From: Apostichopus japonicus
Taxonomy: Eukaryota > Echinodermata > Holothuroidea > Aspidochirotida > Stichopodidae
Direction: 5' to 3'
Assembly (NCBI RefSeq): GCF_037975245.1
Contig: NC_092570.1
Location: 17,585,918 to 17,649,917, forward strand
Length of the DNA stretch: 64,000 nucleotides
A model generated the notes under the pieces. It was not told the origin of the DNA and made no database searches. It was given only the letters and a program-made list of their open reading frames with translations. Positions 3,120 through 21,426 of this stretch are shown one piece after another. Position numbers and translations under genes: made by a program. Positions within the stretch are counted from its first letter, which is position 1. Every line of letters starts with the position of its first letter.

Positions 3120-3125
3120 TACATT
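3120..3125. repeat. Left target-site duplication of the Polinton
   Basis: TACATT immediately outside the left inverted repeat. The identical TACATT follows the right end at 21427-21432. A 6-bp duplication is the known hallmark of Polinton integrase. Confidence 0.93.
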
Positions 3126-3488
3126 AGTAGTGTATAGACCACAACCGGGGCACAATCGACAAGGGGGACCCCAACCGGGGCATAATGGGCATGGGGGACC
3201 GGAACTAGGGCAAAATAGACAGTGGGGACCCAGACCGGGGCAAAATGGACAGTGGGGACCCCAACCGGGGCATAATCGACAAGGGGGACCCGAACTAGGG
3301 CAAAATGGACATTGGGGACCGGAACTAGGGCAAAATGGACATTGGGGACCGGAACTAGGGCAAAATGGACATTGGGGACCGAAACTAGGGCATTTCTGGA
3401 AAATGAGAACAAAAGCGATGTGTTGTACAGTTTTTTTTTTTTTTATTCGAGTGCATCACAGCATATCTTCACATCAAACAAGAAAATA
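3126..3488 (+). repeat. Polinton left terminal inverted repeat
   Basis: Runs from AGTAGTGTATAGACC to ...CAAACAAGAAAATA. It matches the reverse complement of 21066-21426, the only visible difference being a poly(T) run near 3430-3443 that is longer than, and uninterrupted compared with, its partner. The outer two thirds consist of 30-bp tandem units. In Polintons the inverted ends serve as protein-primed replication origins and integrase recognition sites. Confidence 0.93.
3141..3392 (+). repeat. 30-bp tandem repeats inside the left inverted repeat
   Basis: Eight full units plus a partial one with consensus (C/G)NAAC(C/T)(G/A)GGGCA(T/A)AATNGACANNGGGGACC. Two sub-types (CCGGGG and CTAGGG) are interleaved, and the last complete units are nearly identical. 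The same units in the same order occur, inverted, at the right end. Confidence 0.92.
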
Positions 3489-4318
3489 TATTGAACAAAA
3501 GGATAAGTCAATAGTGGCTTTAGTGACAATAACAATAGCGACTCGTCCGTTAGGTAGGATATTGATCGATTTCTGTTTGAGACAAACAATTACTAACCCC
3601 TAAGATTATCGTCCGTTAGCTATTTTCGCGCTCAGTACACAATGAAACTCAATGTTCTCCTTTGGGGTCTTAACCTTTCCTTTAGGATTTCATTCGGAAA
3701 CAAACGGTGCATAGACAGTTTTATATATTAAAGAAAAATAAAGTATATACGTAAAAGGTTTACAACCATTTCAGTGCTTTACAGCAACACTTTTCACATA
3801 TTTTTTAACTCAAAACACGTTTGCAATTAACAGTTCACCCTTATTTGTAAATAAAAATTTACAAAAAAAAAAATATCACATATTTTTAAACTCAAAACAC
3901 GTTTGCAATTAACAGTTCACCCTTATTTGTAAATCAAAATTTACAAAAATATTTTAGCTGCAACATTTAACAAATATCATCATATGAACAGAAGAAAGCT
4001 CTTCGTTTAAAATTAATTTTGGTTCACAAACATAGTACAAGTTAAATAGATAAAAAATAAATAAATAAAAAAAATCACAACCATTGTACAAGTTTAAAAA
4101 ATAATAATAATGCTAATGTAAAAGTTAAAATAGAAAAATTCTTTCAATCTAACTAATAAAATGTACTTTACCGAAGATTGGTAGTTTCCAACTGGGAGTA
4201 GAAAATGAAAAACACAGCGAGCATACTAGGTATCATGTCTGATTTTAAGTTCACGAGTCCATGACGACAAATGAAGGTAAAGTATTACACTTTGTCCCGA
4301 CAAACACCTATTTTCCGT
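3489..4318. other. AT-rich non-coding DNA inside the left end of the Polinton
   Basis: No ORF with coding character is seen. The stretch contains an 82-bp direct duplication (annotated separately) and A-rich runs. It may hold the 3' end of the antisense transcription unit starting near 5000. Confidence 0.5.
3795..3956 (+). repeat. 82-bp tandem duplication
   Basis: Two adjacent copies starting CACATATTTTT and sharing ACTCAAAACACGTTTGCAAT and CAGTTCACCCTTATTTGTAA. They differ mainly in A-run length. Confidence 0.85.
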
Positions 4319-4561
4319 CTAGGTTTCGTCTATGATCCGCACATTCATATCTCCTGGAAGGTAGGTAGTTCCTCCATCACAGTAATCAATGGTACAGTTG
4401 AACCCTCTTTCATATCGCAAGAAAACATTGGTAGCGTGTTTTGGTACTTCTGATTTGAATAATATCTTCATAACGTGCTCCTTGAAAAGTGTTAGCCATT
4501 CGAACGGTAAATTCACTCCACCACGAAAAAGAGTCATTTTAGAGAATGCCCCACACGTCAT
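4319..4561 (-). CDS. Small Polinton accessory ORF, possible remnant PC4-like domain
   Basis: An 80-residue antisense ORF starting MTCGAFSKMTLFRGG. The central stretch FRGGVNLPFEWLTLFKEH loosely follows the PC4 signature 'KxGIxLTxxxWxxL', which the two plus-strand PC4 proteins of this element show clearly, so a degenerate third copy is possible. A 28-codon ORF (4564-4646 region, antisense) ends in a TGA that overlaps this ATG as ATGA. That could mean translational coupling, a spliced 5' exon or a frameshifted longer gene. No promoter of its own is visible, and it may share the transcript of the antisense gene upstream. The assignment is weak; the coding call itself is moderate. Confidence 0.4.
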   Translation of the reverse strand: MTCGAFSKMTLFRGGVNLPFEWLTLFKEHVMKILFKSEVPKHATNVFLRYERGFNCTIDYCDGGTTYLPGDMNVRIIDET

Positions 4562-4666
4562 GGAAATGAAGGCGTAACTGCTAGAACAAGTCCGTGGTCA
4601 TCCTTCATCACAGGAACCGATGCTATATTTGAGTCCTCTTTCATATTGGATTTTTTTTTATTTTTT

Positions 4667-4672
4667 TTTATT
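4667..4672 (-). terminator. Candidate poly(A) signal AATAAA (antisense)
   Basis: Reads AATAAA on the minus strand about 43 bases after the stop of the acidic antisense ORF, within an A-rich run. This is a plausible 3' end for that gene, though the composition makes chance occurrence easy. Confidence 0.35.
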
Positions 4673-4714
4673 GCGTTTCGCGTGTTTCACGCGTCGTACG
4701 TTGAAAACACATGA

Positions 4715-4960
4715 TCACGAAAATAAGTCATTATTGAGGATGTTCCATAATTCTTCGATGCTAGGTATGGACAGGAAATCCTCCGAAATAGATACCATGA
4801 AATCACTGTCCAGTACCGTAAGTGATAACGCCTCCTCGAACAAATCCAGCAACATTAAATCTTCCGATTCAGATGGGACCGTCGACAAAGTGTGCGGTAT
4901 CTCTTCATCATCATCTCTGATGATAATAGGAAAGTAATTGTACAATTTTGTTTGAGGCAT
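4715..4960 (-). CDS. Acidic accessory protein, activation-domain-like
   Basis: An 81-residue antisense ORF starting MPQTKLYNYFPIII. It is strongly acidic with interspersed bulky hydrophobics (DDDEE near the start, then EDLMLLDLFEEAL and SIEELWNILNNDLF). That pattern resembles transcriptional activation domains rather than any enzyme. A minus-strand TATA-like TTTAAAAAGGG lies at 4997-5007, about 40 bases before the ATG, and an AATAAA follows the stop. The gene is divergent from the C2HC/acidic gene at 5433. I recognise no family. The activator role is inference from composition; an early regulatory function would suit its position in the left arm. Confidence 0.5.
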   Translation of the reverse strand: MPQTKLYNYFPIIIRDDDEEIPHTLSTVPSESEDLMLLDLFEEALSLTVLDSDFMVSISEDFLSIPSIEELWNILNNDLFS

Positions 4961-4996
4961 GGTGATTGCAGAATGGATGAGATCTCGAAATGCTGT

Positions 4997-5007
4997 CCCT
5001 TTTTAAA
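4997..5007 (-). promoter_or_regulatory. TATA-like element for the antisense acidic gene
   Basis: Reads TTTAAAAAGGG on the minus strand, about 40 bases upstream of the ATG at 4960. It forms a divergent promoter pair with the TATA box at 5371. Confidence 0.45.
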
Positions 5008-5105
5008 GTGTTCGACGTGAGTTTTGGTAAACAATTAACAAAACATAAAGAAGAATAAAATGAAGTCTACGTAAAGATGTAAGGTTACGTAAGAGCATAT
5101 TATCT

Positions 5106-5252
5106 AAAACTGTAGGAGCCAAAAATAGAAATCACCCGGAGAAGTTTTCTTTATTGTCATAGAAAATAATTTGGCGGTATTTTTTACTAAAACTGTATAG
5201 GAGCCAAGTTTTCCTTTATTGTCATAGAAAACAATTTGGCGGTATTTTTTAA
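5106..5252 (+). repeat. Direct repeat in the divergent promoter region
   Basis: Two copies, offset about 83 bp, share AAAACTGTA(TA)GGAGCCAA, then TTTATTGTCATAGAAAA and AATTTGGCGGTATTTTTTA. The second copy lacks about 19 bp. The repeat lies between two opposed promoters, so a regulatory role is plausible. The 98-codon antisense ORF over it is probably not a gene. Confidence 0.75.
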
Positions 5253-5370
5253 CGGTTTTAGAGCATGTGGCGGGAACATTTGGGGAGGGGTGTATTCGAT
5301 GTATGCGTACATAACTCCCTATACCTGTGTTGTAATCTAACACATTAACACATACACAGATATGGAATCC

Positions 5371-5378
5371 TATATAAG
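5371..5378 (+). promoter_or_regulatory. TATA box of the C2HC/acidic gene
   Basis: TATATAAG, 62 bases upstream of the ATG at 5433, which leaves room for a start site near 5400 and a short leader. Confidence 0.6.
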
Positions 5379-5432
5379 CGAGTGCTTCTCCGGACATCAT
5401 CTCATTTTATAAGTTTATACTATCGAAACAAG

Positions 5433-5711
5433 ATGACTAGCCGTGTCTTTTGTGAATTCTGTTTGGAACGGTTTGACACACCGACCACTTTCATCTTACA
5501 TTTTAACCAGGTGGAATGCATTTGCATTCCACCATGGGTATTTTTTGAGGTGGATGATGAAGTTGATAAGGAACTTTTGATGAGGGAGAAGAAAGAGGAA
5601 GAAGAAGAAGAAGAAGAAGAAGAAGAAGAAGATCATGAAGAGGAGTTTAAAGCAGTGGCAGAAATACCAATCCTCGTTTATGAAGATATATCTTCAGACG
5701 AGGAATTATAA
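5433..5711 (+). CDS. Small C2HC-type zinc-binding, glutamate-rich protein
   Basis: A 92-residue protein. Cys7, Cys10, His23 and Cys29 are spaced C-x2-C-x12-H-x5-C, a plausible single zinc finger. An uninterrupted glutamate tract and further acidic residues follow, ending EDISSDEEL. The ATG at 5433 is preferred over the longer upstream reading because the TATA box at 5371 places transcription start just before it. A finger plus an acidic tail suggests a nucleic-acid or chromatin regulator made early from the element, but no family is recognised. The (GAA)n stretch encoding the tract is repetitive and its length may vary between copies. Confidence 0.6.
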   Translation: MTSRVFCEFCLERFDTPTTFILHFNQVECICIPPWVFFEVDDEVDKELLMREKKEEEEEEEEEEEEDHEEEFKAVAEIPILVYEDISSDEEL

Positions 5712-6630
5712 GAGATGAAGCTGAATTATTATTATTATTTTTTTTTTTGTCATCGGCTCTGAATAGGGCCACCATATATTCCAGAAAGAGCAGACTTTTT
5801 CCTCTCTTAAAACATGCAATGTGTCGATTCATTTATGTTTATTATATGTATCGTTTTTTACTGATAGGCTCCCAAGACTAAGTTGTAAGATTTAGGCTTT
5901 GTTTAAGTACTTTTAGGCCTACATTTTATTTAGCGCTAACACTTCTCCGCGAATCAACCTCTCGTAATTGTATCGACGAGTTTTCCTTCATCCCACTTTA
6001 ACTGACATGTCTTGATACTTTTCCTTCTGTTTTTTCCCTCTTAAACTATGGTTTCTTCTAATCGCTTTTGTGGTTTTTCATTGCTTTTTGATATTTTTCC
6101 GTTTCGATTTACTCACTGTCATTTTACGCTTATCTTACTAACTTACGCTAAAAACCGTGACTTCCTTTTTAGAAAGATGTTGCGGGCAGGAATACGTAAA
6201 GTAAAGAAGTGTTAAGCGTGTTTTGCAAATAACAACTTTTACAGTTGATTTGGCTGCTTGACTGTAGATAGATTTGTCTGTGCCACATTTCAAAAACAGG
6301 TTGATGACGATTTTATTCAACATTCTTCACGTTCAATAAGGTCGATGTTTCGTAAAAAGTTTCATTGCCGAACGAAAATCCTTCCGCGTATGTGTCTCAA
6401 ATTATATTGACGAAATGCACAGATGTCAGAAAAATGAAAACGTGAGCCGATAACACAACCAAAAATTAACCAAGACGATATCCAAAGCAAATTACAATGG
6501 CTTGAGCTGGATTCTAACAGTTATATATGTGTATATGCCGTACGGTGTACCATGCATATATAGAGAACTGTACATAAAAGCACAGCACACTGTGCAGTAA
6601 ATTGTGGTCCATGTAGAAAATCAATGAGGA
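5712..6630. other. AT-rich gene-poor stretch of the Polinton left arm
   Basis: Only short ORFs without coding character are present. It includes T-rich runs (5730-5750) and an AT-rich stretch near 6510-6565. It may contain 3' ends of flanking genes or non-coding control DNA. Confidence 0.45.
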
Positions 6631-6924
6631 TTAGTCTAAAGTTCTATCGATGGTTTCTAACAGTGGTCGAATATCGACCGTCCGACCAGTTTCTATGTAT
6701 GTGATGAAGTCAGTCATATACTGAGAGTGAGATGATGTGTCAAAGGTCAAAAAGTTTGAGAGAGAGGACGCTATTACGGAGCAGACTATATAAAGGCACC
6801 GATTTGATACGACAGATTCATTCTGTGTCAAAGACTGGTACATGATCACACACGGGTAATGATGGCTTTGAGAACCTTCGACTACTTCTCTGTCAGCCCA
6901 TGATATCCTCTGCATTGCAGGCAA
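6631..6924 (-). CDS. Possible small antisense accessory ORF
   Basis: A 97-codon antisense ORF starting MPAMQRISWADREVVEG and ending LLETIDRTLD. Residue composition is protein-like and it fills an otherwise empty interval. No antisense TATA box is visible upstream, and a plus-strand TATATAAAGG (6788-6797) lies inside it. It could be a shadow of an unrecognised plus-strand transcript. No family is recognised. Confidence 0.25.
   Translation of the reverse strand: MPAMQRISWADREVVEGSQSHHYPCVIMYQSLTQNESVVSNRCLYIVCSVIASSLSNFLTFDTSSHSQYMTDFITYIETGRTVDIRPLLETIDRTLD
6788..6797 (+). promoter_or_regulatory. Orphan TATA box
   Basis: TATATAAAGG on the plus strand, matching the style of the other promoters of the element. 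The next ATGs downstream give only very short ORFs (ending at 6857, 6891 and 6947). The box may drive a non-coding or spliced transcript across the 7.1-7.4 kb repeats. Confidence 0.35.
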
Positions 6925-7116
6925 AGTGCGTCATGGCTGGGAAGTAACCATGTCGATTGCGTTTTTGGCTGGTGCATTACACGAGCAGGCTTGATTAGCC
7001 CCCAATACTGGAGGGCCTTTCGCCTGTGTCACATACACGACATAACACTTGTTACACATAGGTCTGGATGCATTTACTGGATTTCTTTCTCATCTACAAA
7101 CTCGTCACTTTGTGTG

Positions 7117-7401
7117 GGAACCTGTTCCGTGGATTACTACGATATATATTTTTGTATCGGGAACCAGAGCGGTGGATTCATACGATATTGTTTAGTCGTA
7201 ACCCGTCCCGTGGATTAATACGATATACAGTTTTGTGACGGAACCAGATCCGTGGATTCATACGATATTGTTGTTTCGTAACCCGTCCCGTGGATTAATA
7301 CGATATACAGTTTTGTGACGGAACCAGATCCGTGGATTCATACGATATACAGTTTTGTGACGGAACCAGATCCGTGGATTCATACGATATTGTTGTGTCG
7401 T
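7117..7401 (+). repeat. Array of about 40-bp direct repeats upstream of accessory promoters
   Basis: Alternating units beginning CCGTGGATT(A/C)(A/C)TACGATAT, separated by either ACAGTTTTGTGACGGAACCAGAT or TGTTGT(T)TCGTAACCCGTC. At least seven units are visible. The array sits about 100 bp ahead of the TATA box at 7500. An enhancer-like or initiator-binding array is the simplest reading. Confidence 0.8.
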
Positions 7402-7499
7402 CTGATGGAAGACGGTTAGAGGGTAAGTCAAATCACTTTATTGTTTTTGTTTACCTTAGGTACTTTGACCTCACACGTCACGTGGTTTCGCTCTGTGTC

Positions 7500-7534
7500 T
7501 ATATAATGCATTCACATCATGCTCATCGTTCAGT
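7500..7534 (+). promoter_or_regulatory. TATA box and initiator of the 120-residue ORF
   Basis: TATATAA at 7500-7506 with a TCAGT initiator-like motif at 7530-7534. The 30-bp spacing is that of a standard RNA polymerase II core promoter. The ATG follows at 7564. Confidence 0.65.
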
Positions 7535-7563
7535 CTTTCCCAGACACTGAGTAGAACAACATC

Positions 7564-7926
7564 ATGAAACCGCCTCAAGGATTTGTATACTACCTAAAAC
7601 ACGGTGTTCTGAAGATTTTGAAAAATGAAAGATATCATTTTTTGCTACACAAAGCAAAGAGTGATGAAGTCGGCTTATCACACACACACCACGCAGAAGT
7701 GAATGGATCAAGACAATTTTTGGAAGAGGTTGAAATGCATCTTCAAAGTCTGACAAATGCACTTCATGAGCTAGCGTTCGTCGATGAGGCAGCATTTGCG
7801 TTTCGAGCTTTCCGAACGACAGAGGCGACATCCCGTGCCAAAATCGTGTTTTCATTGTACACAACGGACTTACTAGCAGTGATTGAGTTTTTCACTCGAT
7901 ACATTGACGATTTGTGTGAGGCATGA
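7564..7926 (+). CDS. Polinton accessory protein of unknown function (120 aa)
   Basis: The ORF has its own TATA/initiator promoter directly upstream, which argues for a real gene. The protein starts MKPPQGFVYYLKHGVLKIL. It is probably helical (FLEEVEMHLQSLTNALHEL, then DLLAVIEFFTRYIDDL), with no membrane segment and no metal-binding motif. The next gene begins only 70 bases after the stop, with a separate TATA box between them. I do not recognise the family. Confidence 0.6.
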   Translation: MKPPQGFVYYLKHGVLKILKNERYHFLLHKAKSDEVGLSHTHHAEVNGSRQFLEEVEMHLQSLTNALHELAFVDEAAFAFRAFRTTEATSRAKIVFSLYTTDLLAVIEFFTRYIDDLCEA

Positions 7927-7930
7927 CGTG

Positions 7931-7940
7931 TATAAAAGGG
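7931..7940 (+). promoter_or_regulatory. TATA box of the 281-residue ORF
   Basis: TATAAAAGGG lies 5 bases after the preceding stop codon and 65 bases before the ATG at 7996. Confidence 0.65.
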
Positions 7941-7995
7941 TTAGAGTTGTGAATCCGTCTCTCATTTATCGGTTGCTGATCAAACGCTGTGCATC

Positions 7996-8841
7996 ATGTC
8001 TGTACTCTCTCACAACAAAGTGTCTGAAGAGATGATATTCAACGTCTTGGAGGCATCGTTCTTACACTGTTTGGAGGATGCGATCACTGCTTATCCTTAC
8101 AGGATCTGCTACGGTTGTGACATTAATCACCCCAGTCAAACGCATCACCCGTGTGTCATGGATGACATCCTTTATGATCACTCTATGTGGCAATCTATCG
8201 TAGACTGTATTGACCGTGACGTCGTCCACAGAATTTTTGACCGTATTTTAGCCATCCTTAAAGTGAAGGAAACTGCAGAATTTGAGTTTGGCAGGATGTA
8301 CCCGTTTGTCCTGGGATTATGGAAAGGCGAAAAAGGAGGTATCTCACACGTGAAAGAAAACGCTTTATTACCGAATACCATTTTCACACTGGAGACGCGT
8401 CAAGAACTCATCAGAGAGGCTCGCACAAAGTATGGGTCGGATATCGTGAGGGAAGCCGTACGGAGTCATGCGATCGAAAAGAAAAACAATGCCTTTCGAT
8501 ACCGATTGCGTTTGATCGTTCTGAAGGCCCTGGTGGGAGCATGGCATGGTATCAGTTACGAGGAAGCAAAGCTTACCCTCAACGAACTTCAAATACTACA
8601 ACGGTTCAAAGCTGAACTGAGCGAAGAAGACAAACCTTTCTTTGGTTATTTCAGGGACCATCTCGAATTTTCTGAAATCTTTGAGGATTTACCTACAAAT
8701 GGAGCTTCGAGGGATCATCTAAACAATCTTGTCCTCAGGGATGATCGCATATCGTTTTTACTGAGAAAAGCTGAAATGGATATGAATGTAAAACTGCCAC
8801 TGACCATCGAAGCGTATGGTGCATCTCTGATTTGGCTATAA
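7996..8841 (+). CDS. Polinton protein with C-x2-C...HPSQ-x2-H-x-C motif (281 aa)
   Basis: A 281-residue protein. The N-terminal third has Cys38, Cys41, His45, His51 and Cys53 in the arrangement CYGCDINHPSQ...HHPC, a probable zinc site. The rest is rich in charged and predicted helical segments (EKKNNAFRYRLRLIVLKAL). From memory, similar HPSQ-H-C motifs occur in uncharacterised proteins of animal Polintons and adintoviruses, but I cannot verify that here. It has its own TATA box, and its stop codon overlaps the TATA box of the next gene. A role in early replication or regulation is inferred only from its left-arm position. Confidence 0.7.
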   Translation: MSVLSHNKVSEEMIFNVLEASFLHCLEDAITAYPYRICYGCDINHPSQTHHPCVMDDILYDHSMWQSIVDCIDRDVVHRIFDRILAILKVKETAEFEFGRMYPFVLGLWKGEKGGISHVKENALLPNTIFTLETRQELIREARTKYGSDIVREAVRSHAIEKKNNAFRYRLRLIVLKALVGAWHGISYEEAKLTLNELQILQRFKAELSEEDKPFFGYFRDHLEFSEIFEDLPTNGASRDHLNNLVLRDDRISFLLRKAEMDMNVKLPLTIEAYGASLIWL

Positions 8842-8847
8842 AAGGGG
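8837..8847 (+). promoter_or_regulatory. TATA box overlapping the preceding stop codon
   Basis: TATAAAAGGGG. The TAA stop of the 281-residue ORF (8839-8841) lies inside the box. Transcription would start near 8865-8875, leaving a leader of about 100 bases before the ATG at 8976. Confidence 0.7.
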
Positions 8848-8975
8848 CGTTTGCCTACCAGTGAGTTCATTCCTTGAATTGGACTCGACAAACTCACAAC
8901 TACCAACCATCAGTTCGTACTTCGCTTCTGACGCTAAGGTGTTATCGCTTCGTCATCGTATCCTCGAAAGGTATC

Positions 8976-9518
8976 ATGGACTCTGCATGGACATCATTGA
9001 AAGATACTGAGGGGAAGACCGTGTACTTTAACTCGGAGACAAGTGAAGCCACCTACGATCAGCCACTCCCTTCGAAACCAGTCCAGACCGTGATCAAACC
9101 TCATTTCAACCAGTCCATATCACCAAAACCTCTGAATATCAAAGGACATACTCAAAGGAAACGGCACGTTTCAAACGATACTGACATAAGGATCCCCATC
9201 GGAGATGACCGCTTTGTGACTGTCAACGTCTTTAATGGAAAACTGTACATTCATGTTAGAGAATTTTTCTACAACCAAGCAGGAAGAATGTTACCGACGT
9301 CAAGAGGCATTGCTCTCACACCCCCGCAATGGTCAACCTTAATTGAAAAGCTGCCTCTCATCGAAGATGCCTTGCACCGCAAAGAGGAAGCACAAGCTGA
9401 GGCGTCTCATGGATTACCCAAAAGACGAGGCGTCACCCATTTGAAACTGAAGCTGTCAGATAGCGTTGATTCAACAGGGTACGACACTGCCGGTTCGACC
9501 AACTCAGTTATCGAATAA
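8976..9518 (+). CDS. WW-like plus PC4 (SUB1)-like single-stranded DNA-binding protein
   Basis: A 180-residue protein. Residues 5-30 (W5, G13, YFN at 17-19, Y27, P30) match a WW domain whose second aromatic is Tyr. Residues about 71-134 match the PC4/SUB1 fold: IPIGDDRFVTVNVFNGKLYI, then REFF, then RGIALTPPQW, then a C-terminal helix. PC4 proteins bind single-stranded or melted DNA and act in transcription and replication. The tail is basic (KRRGVTHLKLKLS). The ATG at 8976 fits the TATA box at 8837; an upstream in-frame reading from 8874 would start at or before the transcription start. Together with the WW module on the polymerase, this suggests a replication or transcription partner. Confidence 0.8.
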   Translation: MDSAWTSLKDTEGKTVYFNSETSEATYDQPLPSKPVQTVIKPHFNQSISPKPLNIKGHTQRKRHVSNDTDIRIPIGDDRFVTVNVFNGKLYIHVREFFYNQAGRMLPTSRGIALTPPQWSTLIEKLPLIEDALHRKEEAQAEASHGLPKRRGVTHLKLKLSDSVDSTGYDTAGSTNSVIE

Positions 9519-9883
9519 TGGATTGTTACATGGATGTGACGAACACATCAACGTAATTGAAGCATAATAAGTGAAGTTTAATGTGTAAAACAAAACGTTG
9601 ACACTTGACATTTTTTCCTATACGTAACAGTTAAATTTACTATTTTGGTGTGACGTTATTTAGTTGTTTAATGAACCTACATCATCTTTGTTTGAGGTGT
9701 GAGTGTCTGGTGTTGACATTTTACTGTAAATACCATTAACTTGAGATTAACGTATCATGTTCTGCTATGAATGAAAAACGATCATTTTACATTTGCACGT
9801 GAGTGAATAAACACCGTGAAGATATGCCATACAACGTTTTTGTTTCATTTATATGACGTCTCTATCACAAACAGCACATCAGT
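9519..9883. other. Intergenic spacer between the two PC4-like genes
   Basis: AT-rich, no ORF. It includes an AATAAA (9806-9811) that could end the upstream transcript, and a weak TATA-like ATTTATATGAC near 9847-9857 ahead of the next gene. Confidence 0.5.
9806..9811 (+). terminator. Candidate poly(A) signal
   Basis: AATAAA in the spacer about 290 bases after the WW/PC4 gene. Plausible but unproven. Confidence 0.3.
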
Positions 9884-10147
9884 ATGCATTCTACACCCTT
9901 TGTACTTGGTGGTCTGCGCAGGGTTAAGGTGAAAATGATTGGATCGCAAGCGTATGTGACCATTCGAGAATGCCATCCACACCCGAAAAACAGCAAACGG
10001 TTTTTATCTGGGAAGAAGGGTATTAATCTAACCGTCGAAGAGTGGTTCTCATTGATGGAACAGAGCACTATGATTTCAAAAGAAGTCAAAAGGATGTTAA
10101 CCGAAGCTTTGCAACAACGTTGTGCAAAGCTTGATCGTCTCAGATAA
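9884..10147 (+). CDS. Short PC4 (SUB1)-like protein
   Basis: An 87-residue protein that is essentially one PC4-like domain at residues 11-68: RRVKVKMIGSQAYVTIRE, then GKKGINLTVEEW, then a charged helix. The GKKGINLTVEEW stretch aligns with SRGIALTPPQW of the preceding gene, so the two are paralogous modules. It lacks the WW-like segment. Small single-stranded DNA-binding proteins are expected partners of a protein-primed polymerase, which displaces a strand. The gene lies 101 bases before the PolB ATG. Function in replication or transcription is inferred from the fold and position. Confidence 0.7.
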   Translation: MHSTPFVLGGLRRVKVKMIGSQAYVTIRECHPHPKNSKRFLSGKKGINLTVEEWFSLMEQSTMISKEVKRMLTEALQQRCAKLDRLR

Positions 10148-10192
10148 GCAGAAAGGGAAAAGGGAGAGAGGATCTGATCGTGATATCCCAGG

Positions 10193-10230
10193 CTTTAATA
10201 AGTCGCCAGGATACTGCTAAGTATCAGTTC
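10193..10230 (+). promoter_or_regulatory. Candidate promoter of the polymerase gene
   Basis: TTTAATAAG near 10194 and a TATCAGTTC initiator-like site near 10221-10229 precede the ATG at 10249. It is weaker than the other TATA boxes of the element. Confidence 0.4.
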
Positions 10231-10248
10231 GTTTCGAGACACTGAAGC

Positions 10249-14370: not shown

Positions 14371-14428
14371 AGTCTGAAACATTACAAATAAGACGGGGTG
14401 TCCAGATCTTGACACAATTACCAACGAG

Positions 14429-15106
14429 ATGTCGAAGGAAACACTCGATGTCCGATTCAAGCATCCATTTACATGTCTCGTCGCAGGACCAACAGGTAGT
14501 GGTAAAACCGTTTGGTTATCCAGACTGCTGAAACATCGACACACGTTGATTGATCCACCGCCAGAGAACATTGTATGGTTTTACGGTGAATACCAGAAAG
14601 TGTACGACGAGATTCTCAAAGATTGTCCGAGCGTCAGATTTGTTGAAGATTTACCGGATCGATTTGATGACTATATCGATCGAAGCAAACCAAATTTATT
14701 GATCATCGACGATCTCATGCACGAGACGGACGAGCGAATCGCACAATTGTTTACCAAAGGCAGTCACCATAAAAATTTATCCATCATTCTCGTCCTTCAG
14801 AATTTGTTTCATCAAGGCAAACATTCCAGAACGATCAGTCTCAACAGTCACTACGTCGTGCTCTTCAAGAATCCTAGAGATGCTTCTGTGGTGCATCACT
14901 TTGCTAGACAACTTTTACCGGGCAGTACCAGATTCTTACATGAGGTTTACGAAGAGGCTACATCACGTCCCTATGGTTACCTGGTGTTTGACTTTAAGCC
15001 AAATAGCGATGAACGCACTCGCTTCAGGACCAACGTTATGCCTGAAGAAGATGGAGATCGCATTACGGTGTATCTCCTCAAGCGCAAAAACCATCGACCT
15101 CGATGA
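14429..15106 (+). CDS. A32/FtsK-type genome-packaging ATPase
   Basis: A 225-residue P-loop ATPase. Walker A GPTGSGKT occupies residues 20-27. Walker B LLIIDD ends at D94-D95. A sensor-like strand LVLQN lies at 121-125. Length and motif order match the compact packaging ATPases of Polintons, virophages and other double jelly-roll viruses, which translocate DNA into capsids. The gene follows PolB by 58 bases, and its 3' end overlaps the next ORF by 56 bases in another frame. Intact. Confidence 0.93.
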   Translation: MSKETLDVRFKHPFTCLVAGPTGSGKTVWLSRLLKHRHTLIDPPPENIVWFYGEYQKVYDEILKDCPSVRFVEDLPDRFDDYIDRSKPNLLIIDDLMHETDERIAQLFTKGSHHKNLSIILVLQNLFHQGKHSRTISLNSHYVVLFKNPRDASVVHHFARQLLPGSTRFLHEVYEEATSRPYGYLVFDFKPNSDERTRFRTNVMPEEDGDRITVYLLKRKNHRPR

Positions 15107-15464
15107 TCGGGTCTTGCGTGTACTTTACGATACGATCGTTCGTCGGCGATTACGGTTGATACCTGATATCGCACAGGATGGACTCACAGATCGCATTTGT
15201 CTCATTGCCGAGTTTGTGGATCATCAAGACGATTATCGGAAACTCCTGAAGGAAGTCGTCATGATTGATTTTCAACATTTGGAAGCGGCGTTCTCTCTCG
15301 ACGAAAACGTGACCTTCACACACGTCGCCGTGTTCATCATGTATATGGTGGATATGCTCATTCTCAACGGTGTGATCGGACCGACCAATTACCAAAAGTG
15401 GTTTCGTGTAGATAGACCCATGATTAGACGGTTCCGTGGACGCCTCGTACCTTTCAGTTCATAA
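15051..15464 (+). CDS. Small helical protein overlapping the ATPase gene; faint Bcl-2-like pattern
   Basis: A 137-residue ORF whose only ATG before the unique region (15051) lies inside the ATPase frame, a 56-base overlap. The protein looks all-helical. The segment AFSLDENVTFTHVAVFIMYM resembles in spacing the BH1 region of Bcl-2 proteins (acidic residue, aromatic, basic residue, then alternating hydrophobics). The nearly invariant Gly of NWGR is Thr here, however, and no BH3 motif is convincing. Bcl-2-like accessory proteins are, as I recall, reported in adintoviruses, and adenovirus E1B-19K is one, so the idea is worth testing. As an expressed gene I am fairly sure; as a Bcl-2 homologue I am not. 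Confidence 0.6.
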   Translation: MEIALRCISSSAKTIDLDDRVLRVLYDTIVRRRLRLIPDIAQDGLTDRICLIAEFVDHQDDYRKLLKEVVMIDFQHLEAAFSLDENVTFTHVAVFIMYMVDMLILNGVIGPTNYQKWFRVDRPMIRRFRGRLVPFSS

Positions 15465-15504
15465 AACAACATGTCAAACACGCTACGTGTCACTTGATCG
15501 TAGG

Positions 15505-15816
15505 ATGGAGAGGATTCGGGATCAATTCCCCCTTTTAGAACGCTTAGCCCACTGTTCACCAGCAAAACGTTCAACTGTCTTGAAGAACATTGATCCAAAA
15601 CTGTTGCTTACCCTCTGTGAATGTGCGTTGAACATCTTACATGGAAACGTGCCTTTGAATAACCAACAAGTAAAACGACTCAAGCGGCACAAGCATTGTC
15701 TACGTCTACTTGCTGATCGCCAGGTGTCGAGAGGCAAAAAGAAGAAAGCGCTTCACCAACGAGGAAGTGGGGCATTTCTCCAGTCGATGTTAGAGGCCGT
15801 GCTACGTTTGCTATAA
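15505..15816 (+). CDS. Conserved small basic Polinton protein (CEC-ALN-LxGNVPL family)
   Basis: A 103-residue basic protein. The core LCECALNILHGNVPL (about residues 37-51) is followed by KRLKRHKHCLRLLADRQVS, a KKKK cluster and a glycine-containing tail with a hydrophobic helix (FLQSMLEAVLRLL). I recognise this pattern from small ORFs next to integrase and capsid genes in many animal Polintons; the function is not established. Its lysine/arginine content would suit a DNA-condensing or virion protein. ATG 15505 is chosen because earlier in-frame codons are not ATG. The stop TAA is followed after one base by the next ATG. Confidence 0.7.
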   Translation: MERIRDQFPLLERLAHCSPAKRSTVLKNIDPKLLLTLCECALNILHGNVPLNNQQVKRLKRHKHCLRLLADRQVSRGKKKKALHQRGSGAFLQSMLEAVLRLL

Positions 15817-15817
15817 G

Positions 15818-16501
15818 ATGGACTATGGAAAGAAAATGATTCTTGTGCCACAGGGAAGTACTGTCGGTAAATCCGATGAGACGGTGGAGACGTTGAAACA
15901 CATTCAGCAGCTATTGGAAGAAAAAGCATCACCGAACACTCAACAATCTAGACGTCTCGATGATGTCATTAAAGCTATTTTATCACAGACGGATTTGACG
16001 GAAGAAGAGAAAGCCAAACACTATGCGCAAGCCATACAGAGACAGCGCCTGTTTCAGAGACAAGGCAGAGAAGATGAACCATCACGTGATGTACAGACCG
16101 TTGCAAACATACCACTCTTCGAGACGATTATAGGAAGTGTCCCAAAAACATTTCAGGCAAAAGCAGAAAAGCTGGTTCGCTTCCTCACAGATCACCATAT
16201 CAAGTGGTTACCCACCGGAGAATTAATTGGGGCGGACAGTCACAGCATACCGAGTACTCATATCGTAGACTTGGTCAACGATCTCGTGCGACACAGAAAA
16301 ACCGTGAAGCCAAACGGGCGGGAAGCATTAGCACGACAGCTGAGTGATACCAATATCCCTCGTGAACTCGTCGGTAATGAAGAGCGATGGCGTACCATCA
16401 CCAACATCTCTGTGAACCCACCGTCATCCAAAGGACGTCAACGTCGAAAGAGTAGTGATGCTACACATCTGTATGGTGTACGGCAATGGCAGAAATATTA
16501 A
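15818..16501 (+). CDS. Conserved Polinton protein of unknown function (227 aa)
   Basis: A 227-residue protein that starts one base after the preceding stop. The N-terminal half is charged and probably coiled (LKHIQQLLEEKASPN, DLTEEEKAKHYAQAIQRQR). The central part reads IPLFETIIGSVPKTFQAKAEKL, followed by IKWLPTGELIG, then VDLVNDLVRHRK, NIPRELVGNEERW and a basic C-terminus. The 'KA..L...W...GE...DLVND...P..LVGN' pattern is one I know from uncharacterised ORFs of animal Polintons next to the integrase and capsid genes. A structural or packaging role is inferred only from the neighbourhood. Confidence 0.75.
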   Translation: MDYGKKMILVPQGSTVGKSDETVETLKHIQQLLEEKASPNTQQSRRLDDVIKAILSQTDLTEEEKAKHYAQAIQRQRLFQRQGREDEPSRDVQTVANIPLFETIIGSVPKTFQAKAEKLVRFLTDHHIKWLPTGELIGADSHSIPSTHIVDLVNDLVRHRKTVKPNGREALARQLSDTNIPRELVGNEERWRTITNISVNPPSSKGRQRRKSSDATHLYGVRQWQKY

Positions 16502-16623
16502 GTGTGACGTACCTTGACGGTTTCTCATATCACTTTAGAACGACATGGCATTCATGCAAAGTCGGCCTTTCGTGCAAATTCAGAGTAGACTGAAGCAAAT
16601 CCGTTGTCTCTGTGCCTGCTGCA

Positions 16624-17727
16624 ATGGTAAGATCGTCACCGGTGTCGACGGACTCGCTAGCGACCATTCTTCACGATCTCTACTACGACGCTTCGCATCC
16701 CGCTGGTTACAGAGGCGTAAATGCCCTACTTCGTCACGCCAGGAAGCGAAGACCAAACACAAAGTTACAAGAGGTCAAAGCATGGTTGAGGACACAGGAC
16801 CCTTACACGTTACACAAACCGAGCCGAAAGCGTTACAGCCGCAATCGCATCTACGTCAAAGGGATTGATGATCAGTGGCAAGCCGATCTTGTTGACGTCA
16901 GACAGCTCTCTCGTCAAAATCGTGGTTTTAAATATCTACTGACGTGCATCGACATTTTCTCTAAATATGCATGGGTCATTCCTCTCAAGGATAAGACGGG
17001 TACATCTCTGAAAAGGGCCTTCCTGGATATTTTGAAAGATGGACGTCAACCTCGAAAGTTACAAACTGATAAGGGGTCCGAATTTTTCAACCGGCAGGTC
17101 AAGAACCTTTTGATCGAAAAAGATATCCATCTCTTCGCCACACACAACGAGACCAAGGCAAGCGTCGTGGAAAGATTTAATAGGACCTTAAAGGAAAAAA
17201 TGTGGAAGTACTTTACGGCAAACCATACGATGGCTTATCTTAATGTGCTACCGAAACTGGTGAACAGCTACAACAGTGCGCATCATCGCAGTATCGGCCG
17301 ATCTCCCAACTCCGTGACCCTCAAAAATGAACTCGACGTGTGGCGCACATTGTATCCACGTCAGACTTCACAACAGCCACAGGTCTTTCGATTTGACGTC
17401 GGTGATAAAGTACGACTGAGCATGACGGTCCGTCCATTCCGTAAAGGTTACTTACCTCGATGGACGGAAGAAATTTTTACGGTGAGTGCACGACTACCGA
17501 GACGTCCACCCGTATATCGCATCAAAGATTGGGATGGTGAGGTGATCCATGGTACGTTTTACGAAACGGAAATTCAACGTGTCGACAAACATGACAAGGA
17601 CGTGTACAGAGTGGAGAGAGTGTTACGGCGTCGCAGAAAGCAAGACGGGAAGATGGAATATTTCGTCAAATGGACCGGTTATCCATCAAAGTTCAATAGT
17701 TGGACGGATCAACTCATAAATTTGTAA
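16624..17727 (+). CDS. int: Retroviral-like integrase with C-terminal chromodomain
   Basis: A 367-residue protein. The catalytic triad is D88 (in WQADLVD), D149 (LQTDKGSEF) and E183 (VVERFNRTLKEKMW), the D,D-34-E arrangement of DDE integrases. An SH3-like region (about 260-320: FDVGDKVRL, then YRIKDW, then FYETEIQ) follows. The C-terminus is a chromodomain (YRVERVLRRRR, then EYFVKWTGYPSKFNSW). It would insert the linear element by processing the AG/CT ends and making 6-bp staggered cuts, consistent with the observed TACATT duplication. The chromodomain may target modified histones. ATG 16624 is used; an earlier reading would need a GTG start. Intact. Confidence 0.95.
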   Translation: MVRSSPVSTDSLATILHDLYYDASHPAGYRGVNALLRHARKRRPNTKLQEVKAWLRTQDPYTLHKPSRKRYSRNRIYVKGIDDQWQADLVDVRQLSRQNRGFKYLLTCIDIFSKYAWVIPLKDKTGTSLKRAFLDILKDGRQPRKLQTDKGSEFFNRQVKNLLIEKDIHLFATHNETKASVVERFNRTLKEKMWKYFTANHTMAYLNVLPKLVNSYNSAHHRSIGRSPNSVTLKNELDVWRTLYPRQTSQQPQVFRFDVGDKVRLSMTVRPFRKGYLPRWTEEIFTVSARLPRRPPVYRIKDWDGEVIHGTFYETEIQRVDKHDKDVYRVERVLRRRRKQDGKMEYFVKWTGYPSKFNSWTDQLINL

Positions 17728-17788
17728 CATACTGGGTTCAGCTTCACATCGACACCGACGTTGGAAGAAAACGGATTGATGCGGCATC

Positions 17789-18574
17789 ATGGACAGTTTT
17801 TACGTCACACTACCTAGTAACAGTTCTCTGGATATTTTTCCGGATAACTCATTGGCTCACTACTTCACGCAATTGAGCAAACCGTTAACTCTCCAAGGTG
17901 CTTGGGAAGTAGCACTCTCCAGTATTTCTTACCCTCGCTCCTGGTATGATATCGAATCTCATCATGGTGCTTTTAAGTATCGCATGGGTCCAAACGAATC
18001 ATTTACCAGTGTGACCTTCAAAGACTTTCGAACGAGTGAACAGCCACATCGCGACATCATGGACTGGTTCCGCGATGCGTGTCCCAATCTAACGTTCGAT
18101 TTCCAACCAAAAACTGGTAAAATGACGGTTTCTACGGAAGTAAACGAGCCGTTTTTCGAAGTGGAAGCAACGGGAAGAGTGGCAACACTCATGGGATTCT
18201 ATCATCCCGTCAGAGAAAGTGTCCCGTATTTCGGTGGTGATCGCGAGTTCGAACTTGACGGTAACAGATACACCGGCGATCGCCCCATGGATCGAGATCC
18301 ACTTCATGAACTATTTATTTATACTAACATCATCGAAAATCAATTGGTCGGTGATACCAGTGCACCGCTGTTAAAGACGGTGGCATCCAAAGGCCGCTTT
18401 CCACAGATGCAGACATTTAAATACGATAGACTGGAATACCATTCCGTCATCTCTAGTCTCATTTCCACGATCGAAATCGATATAAGAGACGAAACCGGAG
18501 AGCGAGTACCATTTCAAACTGGACGCGTCGTCTTGACGTTACATTTCCGCCAAAAACGTTCCGTCTTATTGTGA
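17789..18574 (+). CDS. Minor capsid (penton-like, single jelly-roll) protein
   Basis: A 261-residue protein starting MDSFYVTLPSNSSLDIFPDN and continuing LQGAWEVALSSISYP. This is the characteristic N-terminus of Polinton minor capsid proteins, where the motif FYVTLPSNSS and the WEVAL strand recur. The remainder is beta-rich, ending in the strand GRVVLTLHFRQ. It would form the capsid vertices with the double jelly-roll major capsid protein encoded two genes downstream. The next ATG follows by 6 bases. Intact and of usual length. Confidence 0.88.
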   Translation: MDSFYVTLPSNSSLDIFPDNSLAHYFTQLSKPLTLQGAWEVALSSISYPRSWYDIESHHGAFKYRMGPNESFTSVTFKDFRTSEQPHRDIMDWFRDACPNLTFDFQPKTGKMTVSTEVNEPFFEVEATGRVATLMGFYHPVRESVPYFGGDREFELDGNRYTGDRPMDRDPLHELFIYTNIIENQLVGDTSAPLLKTVASKGRFPQMQTFKYDRLEYHSVISSLISTIEIDIRDETGERVPFQTGRVVLTLHFRQKRSVLL

Positions 18575-18580
18575 AGCATC

Positions 18581-18991
18581 ATGAGTCAAGGTCTTCCTGT
18601 GTTTCAAGCTCCCTACTACCAGCGTGGTCATGGACTTGGAGCTGTGTTAGGTATTCTTCGTGGAGCCATTCCGTTTCTGAAACCTGTTTTTAAATCTCTG
18701 GGTAAAAGTGCACTCAGAGCTGGTGTCAACGTGGCAACGGATGTACTAGATGGCCAAAAAGTGGGTTCGTCATTGAAAAGAAGAACCGTCGAAGAAGTGA
18801 AACGACGTGTGAATCAGAAGGGCAGCGGTAAGCGTAGACGAAGGATACCCGTCAGGAGACCCCGTGCCAAAGTCATTCCCAGATCAAGAGGCAGGAAACC
18901 GAAAGCTATAAAACGACGAAAACCTGCGAAAAAACTCATTTCGACTCGTGCCTTCAAGCGACAAAGACTTCATCGGGATATTTTCAGTTAA
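18581..18991 (+). CDS. Small basic virion-type protein (adenovirus pVI/pX-like)
   Basis: A 136-residue protein. The N-terminal part is Gly-rich and amphipathic (GHGLGAVLGILRGAIPFLKP, then GKSALRAGVNVATDVLDG). The C-terminal half is an arginine/lysine-rich tail (GKRRRRIPVRRPRAK and similar). The layout, between minor and major capsid genes, matches the pVI/pX-like small virion proteins described for Polintons: membrane-active helix plus DNA-binding tail. It begins 6 bases after the minor capsid stop and ends 6 bases before the MCP start. Similarity is by pattern; pVI versus pX cannot be decided. Confidence 0.6.
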   Translation: MSQGLPVFQAPYYQRGHGLGAVLGILRGAIPFLKPVFKSLGKSALRAGVNVATDVLDGQKVGSSLKRRTVEEVKRRVNQKGSGKRRRRIPVRRPRAKVIPRSRGRKPKAIKRRKPAKKLISTRAFKRQRLHRDIFS

Positions 18992-18997
18992 GGCAAC

Positions 18998-20335
18998 ATG
19001 ACGACCATTCATCCTCATTCGTGTGAGTGCAGCAAAAGTGAAATGGACATTTTTAGTGTCCCACCGACACAGATCGTCATCGATCGAGGTGCGTGGGAGA
19101 AAATCAACCCCATCGCCGGATTGTCTCAACCTTTTGAATTTGAGATTCCGGGCACCGGAGACCAATACCTCGATCTCGAAGAGACGCAACTTTTCGTCAG
19201 GTGTAAAATTACCAAATCCAACGGTGGTGCTCTCGTACATACTGGAGATAACGTGGACAGTGTCGGACCCGTCAATTATCCCCTCCATGCACTCTTTAAA
19301 CAGGTCGATGTTTCACTCAACGGTCAACAAATTTCGGATTCTTCGGCATGTTATCCGTACAGAGCATACATGGAAGCGTTACTCAACTATGGTCGTGAAG
19401 CCAAGACGAATCATCTGAGTACTGCCTTGTACCAGAAAGATACACCAGGACACATGGAGGACAGCAATGCAGTCAACGGCTCTAACCAAGGACTCAAAAC
19501 CAGAGCAAAACATTTCAAAGACAGTGTAGAAGTGGAACTGATGGGTCGCCTACATTGTGACATTTTCCACATGGATCGATACTTAGTGAACGGTGTTACC
19601 ATGAAGTTGAAATTAATCCCCAACAACGATGCGTTCGTGTTAATGACTACCAATGATGCTGCAGGATACAGAGTTCAGTTCACAGAAGTAGCTCTCTATA
19701 TACGTAGAGTGACACCGAGTGCTACCATGCTACTTCAACATGCGAAAGTGTTGGCGAGTGGCACTACTGCTAAATACCCCATCAACCGCGTACAAGTTCG
19801 AACCAAAGCCGTCCAGGCCGGCAGTACGAACGTCATATCCGATCACTTATGGTTAGGGCAGCTACCGAGACGACTCATCCTTGGGATCGTGAAAACAGCA
19901 GCATTCAACGGCCATTATGCTAAAAATCCATTCAACTTTCACCATTTCAAAGTTAACGAAGTCTCTCTGCGCTACGCTGGACGTATCCATCCTTCAGAGG
20001 CATTGAAATTACGCTTTAACGAGGACGGATCTGCCAATCAAACGATAAGAGCCTATGACTCGCTTTTCACGGCTCTACACAAAAAGAATTTAGATGAAGG
20101 GATAGACGTCACTCGCAACGACTACGAAAAAGGCTACACATTATATGCCTTCGATTTTACACCCGATCTCGCCGACGGTGCCCATTATAACCGTAAGGAT
20201 GAAGGTACATTGGATCTGACGCTACGCTTTGACGAAGCCTTAACCGAGAGTGTTATGCTGATTCTGTATGCCGAGTTTGACAATCTTATCGAAATCGATC
20301 AGCACGGTAACGTTTCATTCGACTTTATTCGTTGA
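18998..20335 (+). CDS. Major capsid protein (double jelly-roll)
   Basis: A 445-residue protein with the Polinton MCP signature: an N-terminal SEMDIFSVPPTQ, then PIAGLSQPFEFEIPGTGDQY, YLDLEETQLFVRCKI, PVNYPLHALFKQVDVSLNGQ and, further on, RLHCDIFHMDRYLVNGVTMK. The strong 'FxQVDVxLNG' and 'HxDRYLxNGV' blocks are typical of double jelly-roll capsids related to hexon and virophage MCPs. It would assemble the T-number icosahedral shell. The downstream protease ATG follows its stop after two bases, so the two genes are probably co-expressed. No frame damage is seen. Confidence 0.93.
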   Translation: MTTIHPHSCECSKSEMDIFSVPPTQIVIDRGAWEKINPIAGLSQPFEFEIPGTGDQYLDLEETQLFVRCKITKSNGGALVHTGDNVDSVGPVNYPLHALFKQVDVSLNGQQISDSSACYPYRAYMEALLNYGREAKTNHLSTALYQKDTPGHMEDSNAVNGSNQGLKTRAKHFKDSVEVELMGRLHCDIFHMDRYLVNGVTMKLKLIPNNDAFVLMTTNDAAGYRVQFTEVALYIRRVTPSATMLLQHAKVLASGTTAKYPINRVQVRTKAVQAGSTNVISDHLWLGQLPRRLILGIVKTAAFNGHYAKNPFNFHHFKVNEVSLRYAGRIHPSEALKLRFNEDGSANQTIRAYDSLFTALHKKNLDEGIDVTRNDYEKGYTLYAFDFTPDLADGAHYNRKDEGTLDLTLRFDEALTESVMLILYAEFDNLIEIDQHGNVSFDFIR

Positions 20336-20337
20336 AA

Positions 20338-20787
20338 ATGGACAGCACGACGCTGACGAAGATCCTCGAGAGAGATACGTTTACAGCACCTACATTCCGA
20401 GGTGTGTTTGCATCCGACAATTTGCCAACACGGCGTCCTGAACCAGGCAACTGTTACGTGTTCAACACAGATCCATCGGCTTATGAGGGTCAACACTGGA
20501 CGTGCTTGTTCGTGTCACGAGACCGCACCGTCGTAGAATATTTCGATTCTTTTGGCCGACCACCCACGACGATACCAGGCATCGCACGGTTTCTTCGAAA
20601 CGAAGTTGTTCGTTACAACACACGCCAGTTACAATCGCTGAGCTCTCATGTGTGTGGACATTACTGTTTGTATTATCTCTTGCATCGGTGCCGTGGACAA
20701 CGTATGGCGGATATCGTTGGAAGGTTTACCGATGACGTTCACCGTAATGACCAAGATGTATATTATTTCATCAATCCATATCTTTAA
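20338..20787 (+). CDS. Adenain-like cysteine protease
   Basis: A 149-residue protease of the adenovirus/Ulp1 clan. The catalytic triad is readable: H53 in GQHWTCLFV, D70 in VEYFDSFGRPP and C106 in SHVCGHYCLYYL, with Q97 or Q99 as oxyanion glutamine. It would process capsid and core precursors during virion maturation. The true ATG is 20338; the reading 6 bases upstream would need a TTG. It starts two bases after the MCP stop and is the last gene before the right inverted repeat. Length and spacing fit Polinton PRO. Confidence 0.93.
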   Translation: MDSTTLTKILERDTFTAPTFRGVFASDNLPTRRPEPGNCYVFNTDPSAYEGQHWTCLFVSRDRTVVEYFDSFGRPPTTIPGIARFLRNEVVRYNTRQLQSLSSHVCGHYCLYYLLHRCRGQRMADIVGRFTDDVHRNDQDVYYFINPYL

Positions 20788-21065
20788 CGATTGATCATTT
20801 CAATGTTCACTATTTCATGTGTTTACCAAGTTGTTGTTCTAAACATAATCATGCATGATTTACTGTGTTTTCCAATTTTTGTTTTGTTGTTCAAATGTTC
20901 CATACTTTAAAATAATAATGATATTAAAATGTGCTAGTATCCGAAATGAATTTCGTCGGAACGGGTTTACCGACCGTCTCCTCACCGTTATGGTAAAACG
21001 ATAACCAAAGTAGTGATGTACTATCGATATCATTTTTGTTTTTACATGTATGACTTAAGCACCTG
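20788..21065. other. Non-coding spacer before the right inverted repeat
   Basis: AT-rich, no ORF. It contains the small palindrome CGAAATGAATTTCG near 20941 and a GC-richer stretch (GGAACGGGTTTACCGACCGTC). It may carry the 3' end of the late transcript. Confidence 0.5.
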
Positions 21066-21426
21066 TATTTTCTTGTTTGATGTGAAGATATGCTGTGATG
21101 CACTCGAATAAAAAAACAAAACTGTACAACACATCGCTTTTGTTCTCATTTTCCAGAAATGCCCTAGTTTCGGTCCCCAATGTCCATTTTGCCCTAGTTC
21201 CGGTCCCCAATGTCCATTTTGCCCTAGTTCCGGTCCCCAATGTCCATTTTGCCCTAGTTCGGGTCCCCCTTGTCGATTATGCCCCGGTTGGGGTCCCCAC
21301 TGTCCATTTTGCCCCGGTCTGGGTCCCCACTGTCTATTTTGCCCTAGTTCCGGTCCCCCATGCCCATTATGCCCCGGTTGGGGTCCCCCTTGTCGATTGT
21401 GCCCCGGTTGTGGTCTATACACTACT
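21066..21426 (-). repeat. Polinton right terminal inverted repeat
   Basis: Reverse complement of 3126-3488, identical in every tandem unit and in their order, differing at the interrupted poly(A/T) run near 21111-21120. It ends CTATACACTACT, giving the CT-3' terminus. Confidence 0.93.
21162..21412 (-). repeat. 30-bp tandem repeats inside the right inverted repeat
   Basis: The same eight-plus units as the left end in inverted orientation, with CCGGGG and CTAGGG sub-types in the same order. Confidence 0.9.

What the first reader, a model, noticed from the sequence alone, without database searches (positions are those of the whole stretch)
3126..21426. Structurally complete, apparently intact Polinton (possible endogenous adintovirus)
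Both termini, target duplication and every hallmark gene are present with catalytic residues visible: PolB exonuclease and polymerase motifs, ATPase Walker A/B, integrase DDE, protease His-Asp-Cys. Most genomic Polintons are damaged. This one could still replicate and form particles.
Basis: partly seen in the sequence, partly recalled or inferred. Interest (0 to 1): 0.9.

Follow-up and report, generated by a model that had tools for sequence, protein, structure and literature searches.

The report
Intact sea-cucumber Polinton with palindromic satellites
A complete virus-like Polinton sits in a sea cucumber chromosome, and the same genome holds short, often nearly mirror-image elements with related ends that seem to be parasites of it.

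Summary
Window 3126-21426 (18,301 bp) is a complete Polinton/Maverick: TIRs of 363/361 bp identical outside one poly-T, a 6-bp target duplication, and 14 open same-strand frames including PolB, packaging ATPase, integrase, protease and a capsid protein modelled with a double jelly-roll. Host: Apostichopus japonicus or a near relative. The other full-length copy found (C16) has a broken PolB; two further same-family PolB copies are broken and partial. Intact Polintons are already known (134 in vertebrates). Replication or particles were not tested; the penton is by homology only.

What is new lies outside the window. Ten more elements of 7.2-10.6 kb have related TIRs and exact 6-bp duplications, no window gene but the last 31 protease codons (and one weak 32-residue match), and a zinc-finger gene (full-length in nine, split in one). 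Eight are largely palindromic, five as single arms of 2.9-4.2 kb, 98.9-99.97% alike. Best reading: trans-mobilised satellites born by snap-back in protein-primed replication, as in palindromic adenovirus defectives (recalled). My paper searches found no Polinton with PC4; this one has two PC4 proteins, one fused to a WW domain.

The parts
3120..3125 (.). target-site duplication, left copy (TACATT)
3126..3488 (+). left terminal inverted repeat (363 bp) with 30-bp tandem repeats
5433..5711 (+). small ORF, 92 aa, acidic, CxxC...H pattern by eye (possible early gene; no Pfam match above cut-off)
7109..7390 (+). about seven ~40-bp repeats upstream of the first long gene; enhancer or promoter-like by position (inference)
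7564..7926 (+). ORF of 120 aa, unknown
7996..8841 (+). 281-aa protein, unknown; short similarity (55 residues) to a second Polinton lineage
8976..9518 (+). WW domain + PC4 (transcriptional coactivator p15) protein, 180 aa
9884..10147 (+). second PC4-domain protein, 87 aa
10249..14370 (+). family B DNA polymerase (protein-primed type inferred), 1373 aa; weak WW-like N-terminus below Pfam's cut-off
14429..15106 (+). packaging ATPase, 225 aa
15051..15464 (+). ORF (start uncertain; frame open from 14703), unknown
15505..15816 (+). 103-aa protein conserved in other Polinton lineages of this genome
15818..16501 (+). 227-aa protein conserved in other Polinton lineages of this genome
16612..17727 (+). 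retroviral-type DDE integrase with C-terminal chromodomain (first ATG 16624)
17789..18574 (+). putative penton / minor capsid protein, 261 aa (by position and 32-35% identity to a second lineage; fold not confirmed)
18581..18991 (+). small basic core-type protein, 136 aa
18998..20335 (+). major capsid protein, 445 aa, double jelly-roll fold
20338..20787 (+). adenain/S273R-type cysteine protease, 149 aa
21066..21426 (-). right terminal inverted repeat (361 bp)
21427..21432 (.). target-site duplication, right copy (TACATT)

Best explanation
The window holds a recently inserted, coding-intact Polinton (Maverick; endogenous adintovirus-type element) of the sea cucumber Apostichopus japonicus or a near relative. 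Shown: termini, target duplication, open genes, capsid fold, a second full-length copy with broken PolB, purifying selection on PolB between the two. Inferred from established Polinton biology: its PolB copies the DNA from protein-primed TIR origins, the integrase inserts it with a 6-bp duplication, and capsid, ATPase and protease could package it. Related TIRs are used by at least ten short elements that lack the replication, integration and capsid genes; eight are largely inverted duplications around a shared centre. I think these are trans-mobilised satellites: an internally deleted Polinton that gained a zinc-finger gene folded back on itself during strand-displacement replication, giving a palindrome with an origin at each end that the helper copies and integrates. 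The WW-PC4 proteins most likely act in Pol II transcription or as single-strand binding proteins during replication (inferred).
For: Polinton. PolB between window and C16 copy: dN 0.0132, dS 0.0832, ratio 0.16. Satellites: facing TIR matches bounding elements of 7,161-10,595 bp; exact 6-bp duplications in 12 of 12 elements checked, a different 6-mer at each; no window gene but the last 31 protease codons in 18 of 20 halves, plus a weak 32-residue match to the 92-aa ORF in 13 of 20; arm identity 99.5-99.97% in 7 of 10, higher there than to the same-side half of any other element; arms pair by element in a tree for 7 of 8 and 6 of 10; the 298-bp centre of one found in 7 of 7 others tested; zinc-finger gene full-length in nine of ten, split in C7b. 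An arm carries the Polinton left end, a promoter-like stretch and the protease 3' end.
Against: No expression, extrachromosomal DNA or particle evidence. Post-insertion gene conversion could also make arms alike. C2, C7b and C16c do not show higher within- than between-element identity; C2, C3b, C7b and C16c did not pair, and C19a did not (82 differing columns; its left arm is interrupted, so probably an alignment shift). The zinc-finger ORF shows no purifying selection among type-A copies (pooled pN/pS 1.7). The C16 copy's own TIRs are only 87-88% alike in their best alignments, so it is not clearly young. Penton not verified by fold. The assembly's read type is unknown.
Confidence: 0.8

Rival explanations
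1. The short elements are ordinary internal-deletion derivatives with long TIRs whose arms were later made alike by gene conversion at each locus, not by snap-back replication.
For: Long TIRs occur in Polintons (46-1,447 bp in vertebrates, PMC8097293 passage). A second satellite type on C22 has TIRs of about 2.3 kb around a unique 1.4-kb middle, so arm length varies. Three of ten elements have arms no more alike than between elements.
Against: In eight elements the zinc-finger gene and protease tail lie in both arms, and one centre is found in 7 of 7 others tested, so duplication of a whole half preceded the spread. Element-private variants sit in both arms more often than arms differ (44 against 7 in seven elements; 35 against 10 in seven elements without C19a). 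These facts do not exclude later conversion.
Confidence: 0.25
2. The palindromes are assembly artefacts from fold-back chimeric reads.
For: Inverted artefacts occur in long-read data (recalled); read type of this assembly is unknown.
Against: Twelve of twelve elements have exact 6-bp duplications, different at each site; arms are not exactly identical and the centres share one sequence. The zinc-finger protein is also in another A. japonicus record set (99% over 91%), which speaks for the gene, not for the palindrome.
Confidence: 0.06
3. The window copy is an inert fossil that only looks intact because it is young.
For: TIRs are identical outside a poly-T, so there has been little time for decay. 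No activity data exist.
Against: Purifying selection between this copy and C16 in PolB (ratio 0.16) shows that recent ancestors were functional, but does not separate the two readings for this copy itself.
Confidence: 0.4

Closest known systems
Vertebrate intact Mavericks (Barreat and Katzourakis 2021, PMC8097293; abstract and passages seen)
   Same: Conserved intronless ORFs, TIRs, 6-bp target duplications, AGT-repeat ends, similar size (mean 16,862 bp), core genes under purifying selection (in cyprinids).
   Different: Host is an echinoderm; carries two PC4 proteins ('PC4' does not occur in that paper's text; WW was not looked for there); accompanied by palindromic non-autonomous relatives.
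Adintoviruses (Starrett et al. 2021; seen only as a reference in another paper; content recalled)
   Same: PolB, integrase, hexon-like capsid, packaging ATPase and adenain-type protease together.
   Different: Defining features could not be checked against the paper; no free virus known here.
Palindromic defective adenovirus genomes and symmetric recombinants (SYREC; recalled; listings showed none by title)
   Same: Two copies of one viral end around an inverted duplication; depends on helper protein-primed replication.
   Different: Here the molecules are in the host chromosomes at separate sites with target duplications and carry a zinc-finger gene.
Non-autonomous DNA transposons such as MITEs
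   Same: Share termini with an autonomous partner and lack its enzymes.
   Different: Long (6-10.6 kb), mostly palindromic, with an open zinc-finger frame, and the partner is a virus-like element.

Membership tests
Polinton / Maverick | Terminal inverted repeats with AGT-repeat ends | tested here: met
   motif from PMC8097293
Polinton / Maverick | 6-bp target-site duplication | tested here: met
Polinton / Maverick | protein-primed family B polymerase | tested here: met
   family B by Pfam and motifs; protein priming itself inferred from the family
Polinton / Maverick | retroviral-type DDE integrase | tested here: met
   rve 8.1e-13, chromodomain 1.8e-9
Polinton / Maverick | packaging ATPase and cysteine protease | tested here: met
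Polinton / Maverick | double jelly-roll major capsid protein | tested here: met
Polinton / Maverick | penton (single jelly-roll) protein | tested here: inconclusive
   single-sequence model pLDDT 35; profile found no PDB relative; homologue beside integrase and capsid in the second lineage
Adintovirus | free virions / infection | not testable with these tools
   no reads or material; defining paper not held
Non-autonomous satellite of this Polinton (short elements) | shares helper termini and target duplication length | tested here: met
Non-autonomous satellite of this Polinton (short elements) | lacks replication and capsid genes | tested here: met
   (16 window frames against 20 halves)
Non-autonomous satellite of this Polinton (short elements) | depends on helper enzymes in trans / interferes with helper | not testable with these tools
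   inferred only

The most novel reading that the evidence does not exclude
Sea cucumbers carry a germline-transmitted satellite system of Polinton viruses: gene-poor palindromes, each half an origin plus a zinc-finger gene, that are copied by the helper's protein-primed polymerase, re-made as near-perfect palindromes at each round, possibly packaged, and inserted by the helper's integrase. The zinc-finger protein may tune the helper's promoters, whose sequence the satellites carry.
Probability: 0.35. Interest if true: 0.8.

Novelty: new variant of a known kind. Interest (0 to 1): 0.55.

Why it matters
A coding-intact Polinton is a new member of a known group. The palindromic companions matter more: they are what snap-back errors of protein-primed, strand-displacement replication should leave behind, so they are indirect evidence that Polintons of an animal replicate as linear DNA with terminal origins, a step that to my knowledge (recalled) has not been watched directly. 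They also suggest that Polinton viruses have satellites, as phages, adenoviruses and giant viruses do, in an animal where DNA, small RNA and virus particles can be sampled.

Tried and rejected
Scan of viral contigs with the capsid protein and with a 35-member alignment: 88 and 52 pattern matches, none a relative by tblastn. PHROGs (8 proteins): matches only for the polymerase and, very weakly, the ATPase. Rfam at gathering cut-offs: no match in the window. Penton fold from one sequence: pLDDT 35, not used; penton profile against PDB: only unrelated weak rows. Zinc-finger ORF as a selected gene: not supported within type A, weak between types (dN/dS 0.62 over 161 codons). Zinc-finger ORF inside a full-length Polinton: no tblastn match in the window or in the pieces of the C16 copy. 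Terminal repeats of the second lineage were not resolved at both ends, so whether it too has satellites is open. WW at the PolB N-terminus is below Pfam's cut-off (E 0.035) and is only a lead. Papers: 'polinton' with 'PC4' 0 papers; with 'Apostichopus japonicus' 0; with 'coactivator' 3, unrelated by title and start of abstract in the listing; with 'nonautonomous' 16 (15 listed), of which two were searched for passages and the passages shown mention no such elements; two of 'polinton'/'non-autonomous'/'palindrom' 362 papers, 20 listed, none like this by title. General Polinton listings. A four-term search with 'WW domain' listed 20 of 923 papers, none with 'polinton'; there was no search for WW with Polinton alone. 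The library holds open-licence PMC papers only.

Full report

HOST AND OTHER COPIES. The best capsid match in the protein search is an Apostichopus japonicus protein (442 of 445 identical to the window's); that database protein equals the C16 copy's capsid protein in every residue. The database PC4 protein of A. japonicus differs by one residue from the window's and by two from C16's. The window is G000:C10:17585918-17649917 of a 671.6-Mb assembly in 35 contigs. PolB search gave 36 matches, 34 of 52 candidates scored. Same-family copies: the window (open, 1,374 codons); C16, 97-98%, one stop and one frame break; C17:17174283-17177809 and C14:16258185-16262916, 69-90% piece by piece, partial and broken. 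In the C16 copy (15629973-15648754, 18,782 bp, duplication ACGGCC) the 13 other tested frames are open and 95.7-100% identical in protein, counting the part of the 281-aa frame (258 residues) that lay on the fetched piece. Its own TIRs are only 87-88% alike in their best alignments. PolB differs more (2.7%) than its neighbours (0.2-2.1%), with 69 of 112 differences in nucleotides 1801-3300, which suggests past recombination between copies. PolB dN/dS between the two is 0.16. Further lineages at 41-48% identity are present; two PolB copies of one, on C23 and C21, are open and 99.82% alike over 3,879 nt. That lineage also has PC4-like stretches and a 55-residue stretch like the 281-aa protein, near integrase, penton and capsid genes.

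PC4 AND WW. The 180-aa protein pairs a WW domain most like those of PRPF40A and TCERG1 chains (phmmer E 1.3e-5 to 6e-3) with PC4 (E 3e-11 to the best PC4 chain). Only three homologues were found by the word-limited search of 5.8 billion proteins (70 candidates): two from sea cucumbers and one unnamed. The Holothuria one (P0123) reads by eye as a piece of the 281-aa protein joined to PC4, so the gene order seems shared. I infer a role in Pol II transcription, or as a single-strand binding protein during strand displacement.

SATELLITES. A DNA search with the left TIR gave 60 matches. I grouped those that face each other into twelve elements: the window, C16 and ten shorter ones; the remaining short matches (on C7, C11, C12, C15, C16, C17, C20) were not examined. 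All twelve have exact 6-bp duplications, each a different 6-mer. The ten are 7,161-10,595 bp. Half against half, five align as single inverted arms of 2,908-4,215 bp at 98.9-99.97% (C3a, C3b, C7a, C16a, C16b); C19a, C2 and C19b align in several blocks; C7b and C16c keep only partial arms. Of 16 window frames tested, only the protease's last 31 codons (18 of 20 halves) and a weak 32-residue match to the 92-aa ORF (13 of 20 halves) were found; the latter is not part of a long open frame in the five halves inspected. The C7a right arm reads, from the outside: Polinton left end (like 3126-4017, 77%), protease 3' end (20691-20870, 97%), zinc-finger ORF, 142-bp repeats, a stretch like 6920-7189 (75%), a stretch like 5340-5918 (61%). 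The 298-bp centre of C3a was found in 7 of 7 other elements tested, whole or split between the two fetched halves, in C19a in part; C7b and C16c were not tested.

HOW THE ARMS EVOLVE. In 7 of 10 elements the arms are more alike within the element than to the same-side half of any other element; C2, C7b and C16c are not. Columns private to an element and present in both arms, against columns where its arms differ: 44 against 7 for seven elements; C2 was in the same run with 2 against 224, an alignment shift from its duplicated end, and arms paired in the tree for 6 of 10 (not C2, C3b, C7b, C16c). In a second run with C2 re-anchored and shorter arms, C7b and C16c left out: 36 against 92 for eight elements, 82 of the 92 in C19a, whose left arm is interrupted; without C19a 35 against 10; arms pair for 7 of 8. 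Mutations thus seem to be copied from arm to arm. Hairpin or snap-back replication before integration explains this and the common centre; locus-by-locus gene conversion remains possible.

THE ZINC-FINGER GENE. The 162-aa ORF has one C2H2 finger (E 7.7e-6). Its protein homologues (3) are all from A. japonicus. A genome search gave 57 matches: full-length 162-aa copies (17) in nine of the ten short elements, split copies in C7b and in the left arm of C19a, one 92% copy on C12, and a second, longer type at 83-84% with open frames of 212-213 codons at five places, with more diverged copies elsewhere. The only one of the second type examined, C22:14898602-14904707 (6,106 bp, duplication TGTTTA), has TIRs of about 2.3 kb at over 99.5% without a blastn match to the window's left end, around a 1.4-kb middle with a 204-aa zinc-finger ORF and the protease 3' part. 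So two satellite types with different ends share the same cargo, on the evidence of one type-B element. Type-A copies show no purifying selection; between types dN/dS is 0.62.

JUDGEMENT. The Polinton itself is a new member of a known kind: 134 intact Mavericks were reported for vertebrates (PMC8097293, abstract and passages). The satellites and the PC4/WW module make it a new variant. In my searches no open-licence paper joins Polinton with PC4 or with A. japonicus, and the listings for non-autonomous or palindromic Polintons showed none like these by title or in the passages seen; subscription papers and Repbase reports were not searched. The likeness to palindromic adenovirus defectives is recalled, not tested.

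Noticed in passing
window 1316-1801: 161-aa ORF upstream of the element with a weak match, below cut-off, to a Toll/interleukin receptor (TIR) domain (E 0.009), possibly part of a host gene.
   Followed up: partly
window 36585-38140, 47440-48804, 53593-54792, 57803-58688, 61254-61560: Long tandem arrays (units 25, 44, 402, about 23/245 and 5-16 bp) in the host flank.
   Followed up: no
G000:C23:4383066 and C21:15230472 (L005, L006, L056, L058): A second Polinton lineage, two copies with PolB 99.8% identical and open, with PC4-like stretches near the integrase and capsid genes.
   Followed up: partly
G000:C14:8587964/8594164, C10:16665434/16674889: Pairs of distant PolB matches (32-33%) in opposite orientation about 6-10 kb apart with open frames of 977-1480 codons.
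   Followed up: no
G000:C17:12576539-12677473: Several same-direction fragments of the window's TIR within about 100 kb.
   Followed up: no
G000:C2:13095031-13105625: Short element whose left end is duplicated in tandem (TIR again at 13096875).
   Followed up: partly
G000:C7:21063082-21071220 and left arm of C19:27861461-27870435: Zinc-finger copies split by intervening sequence.
   Followed up: partly
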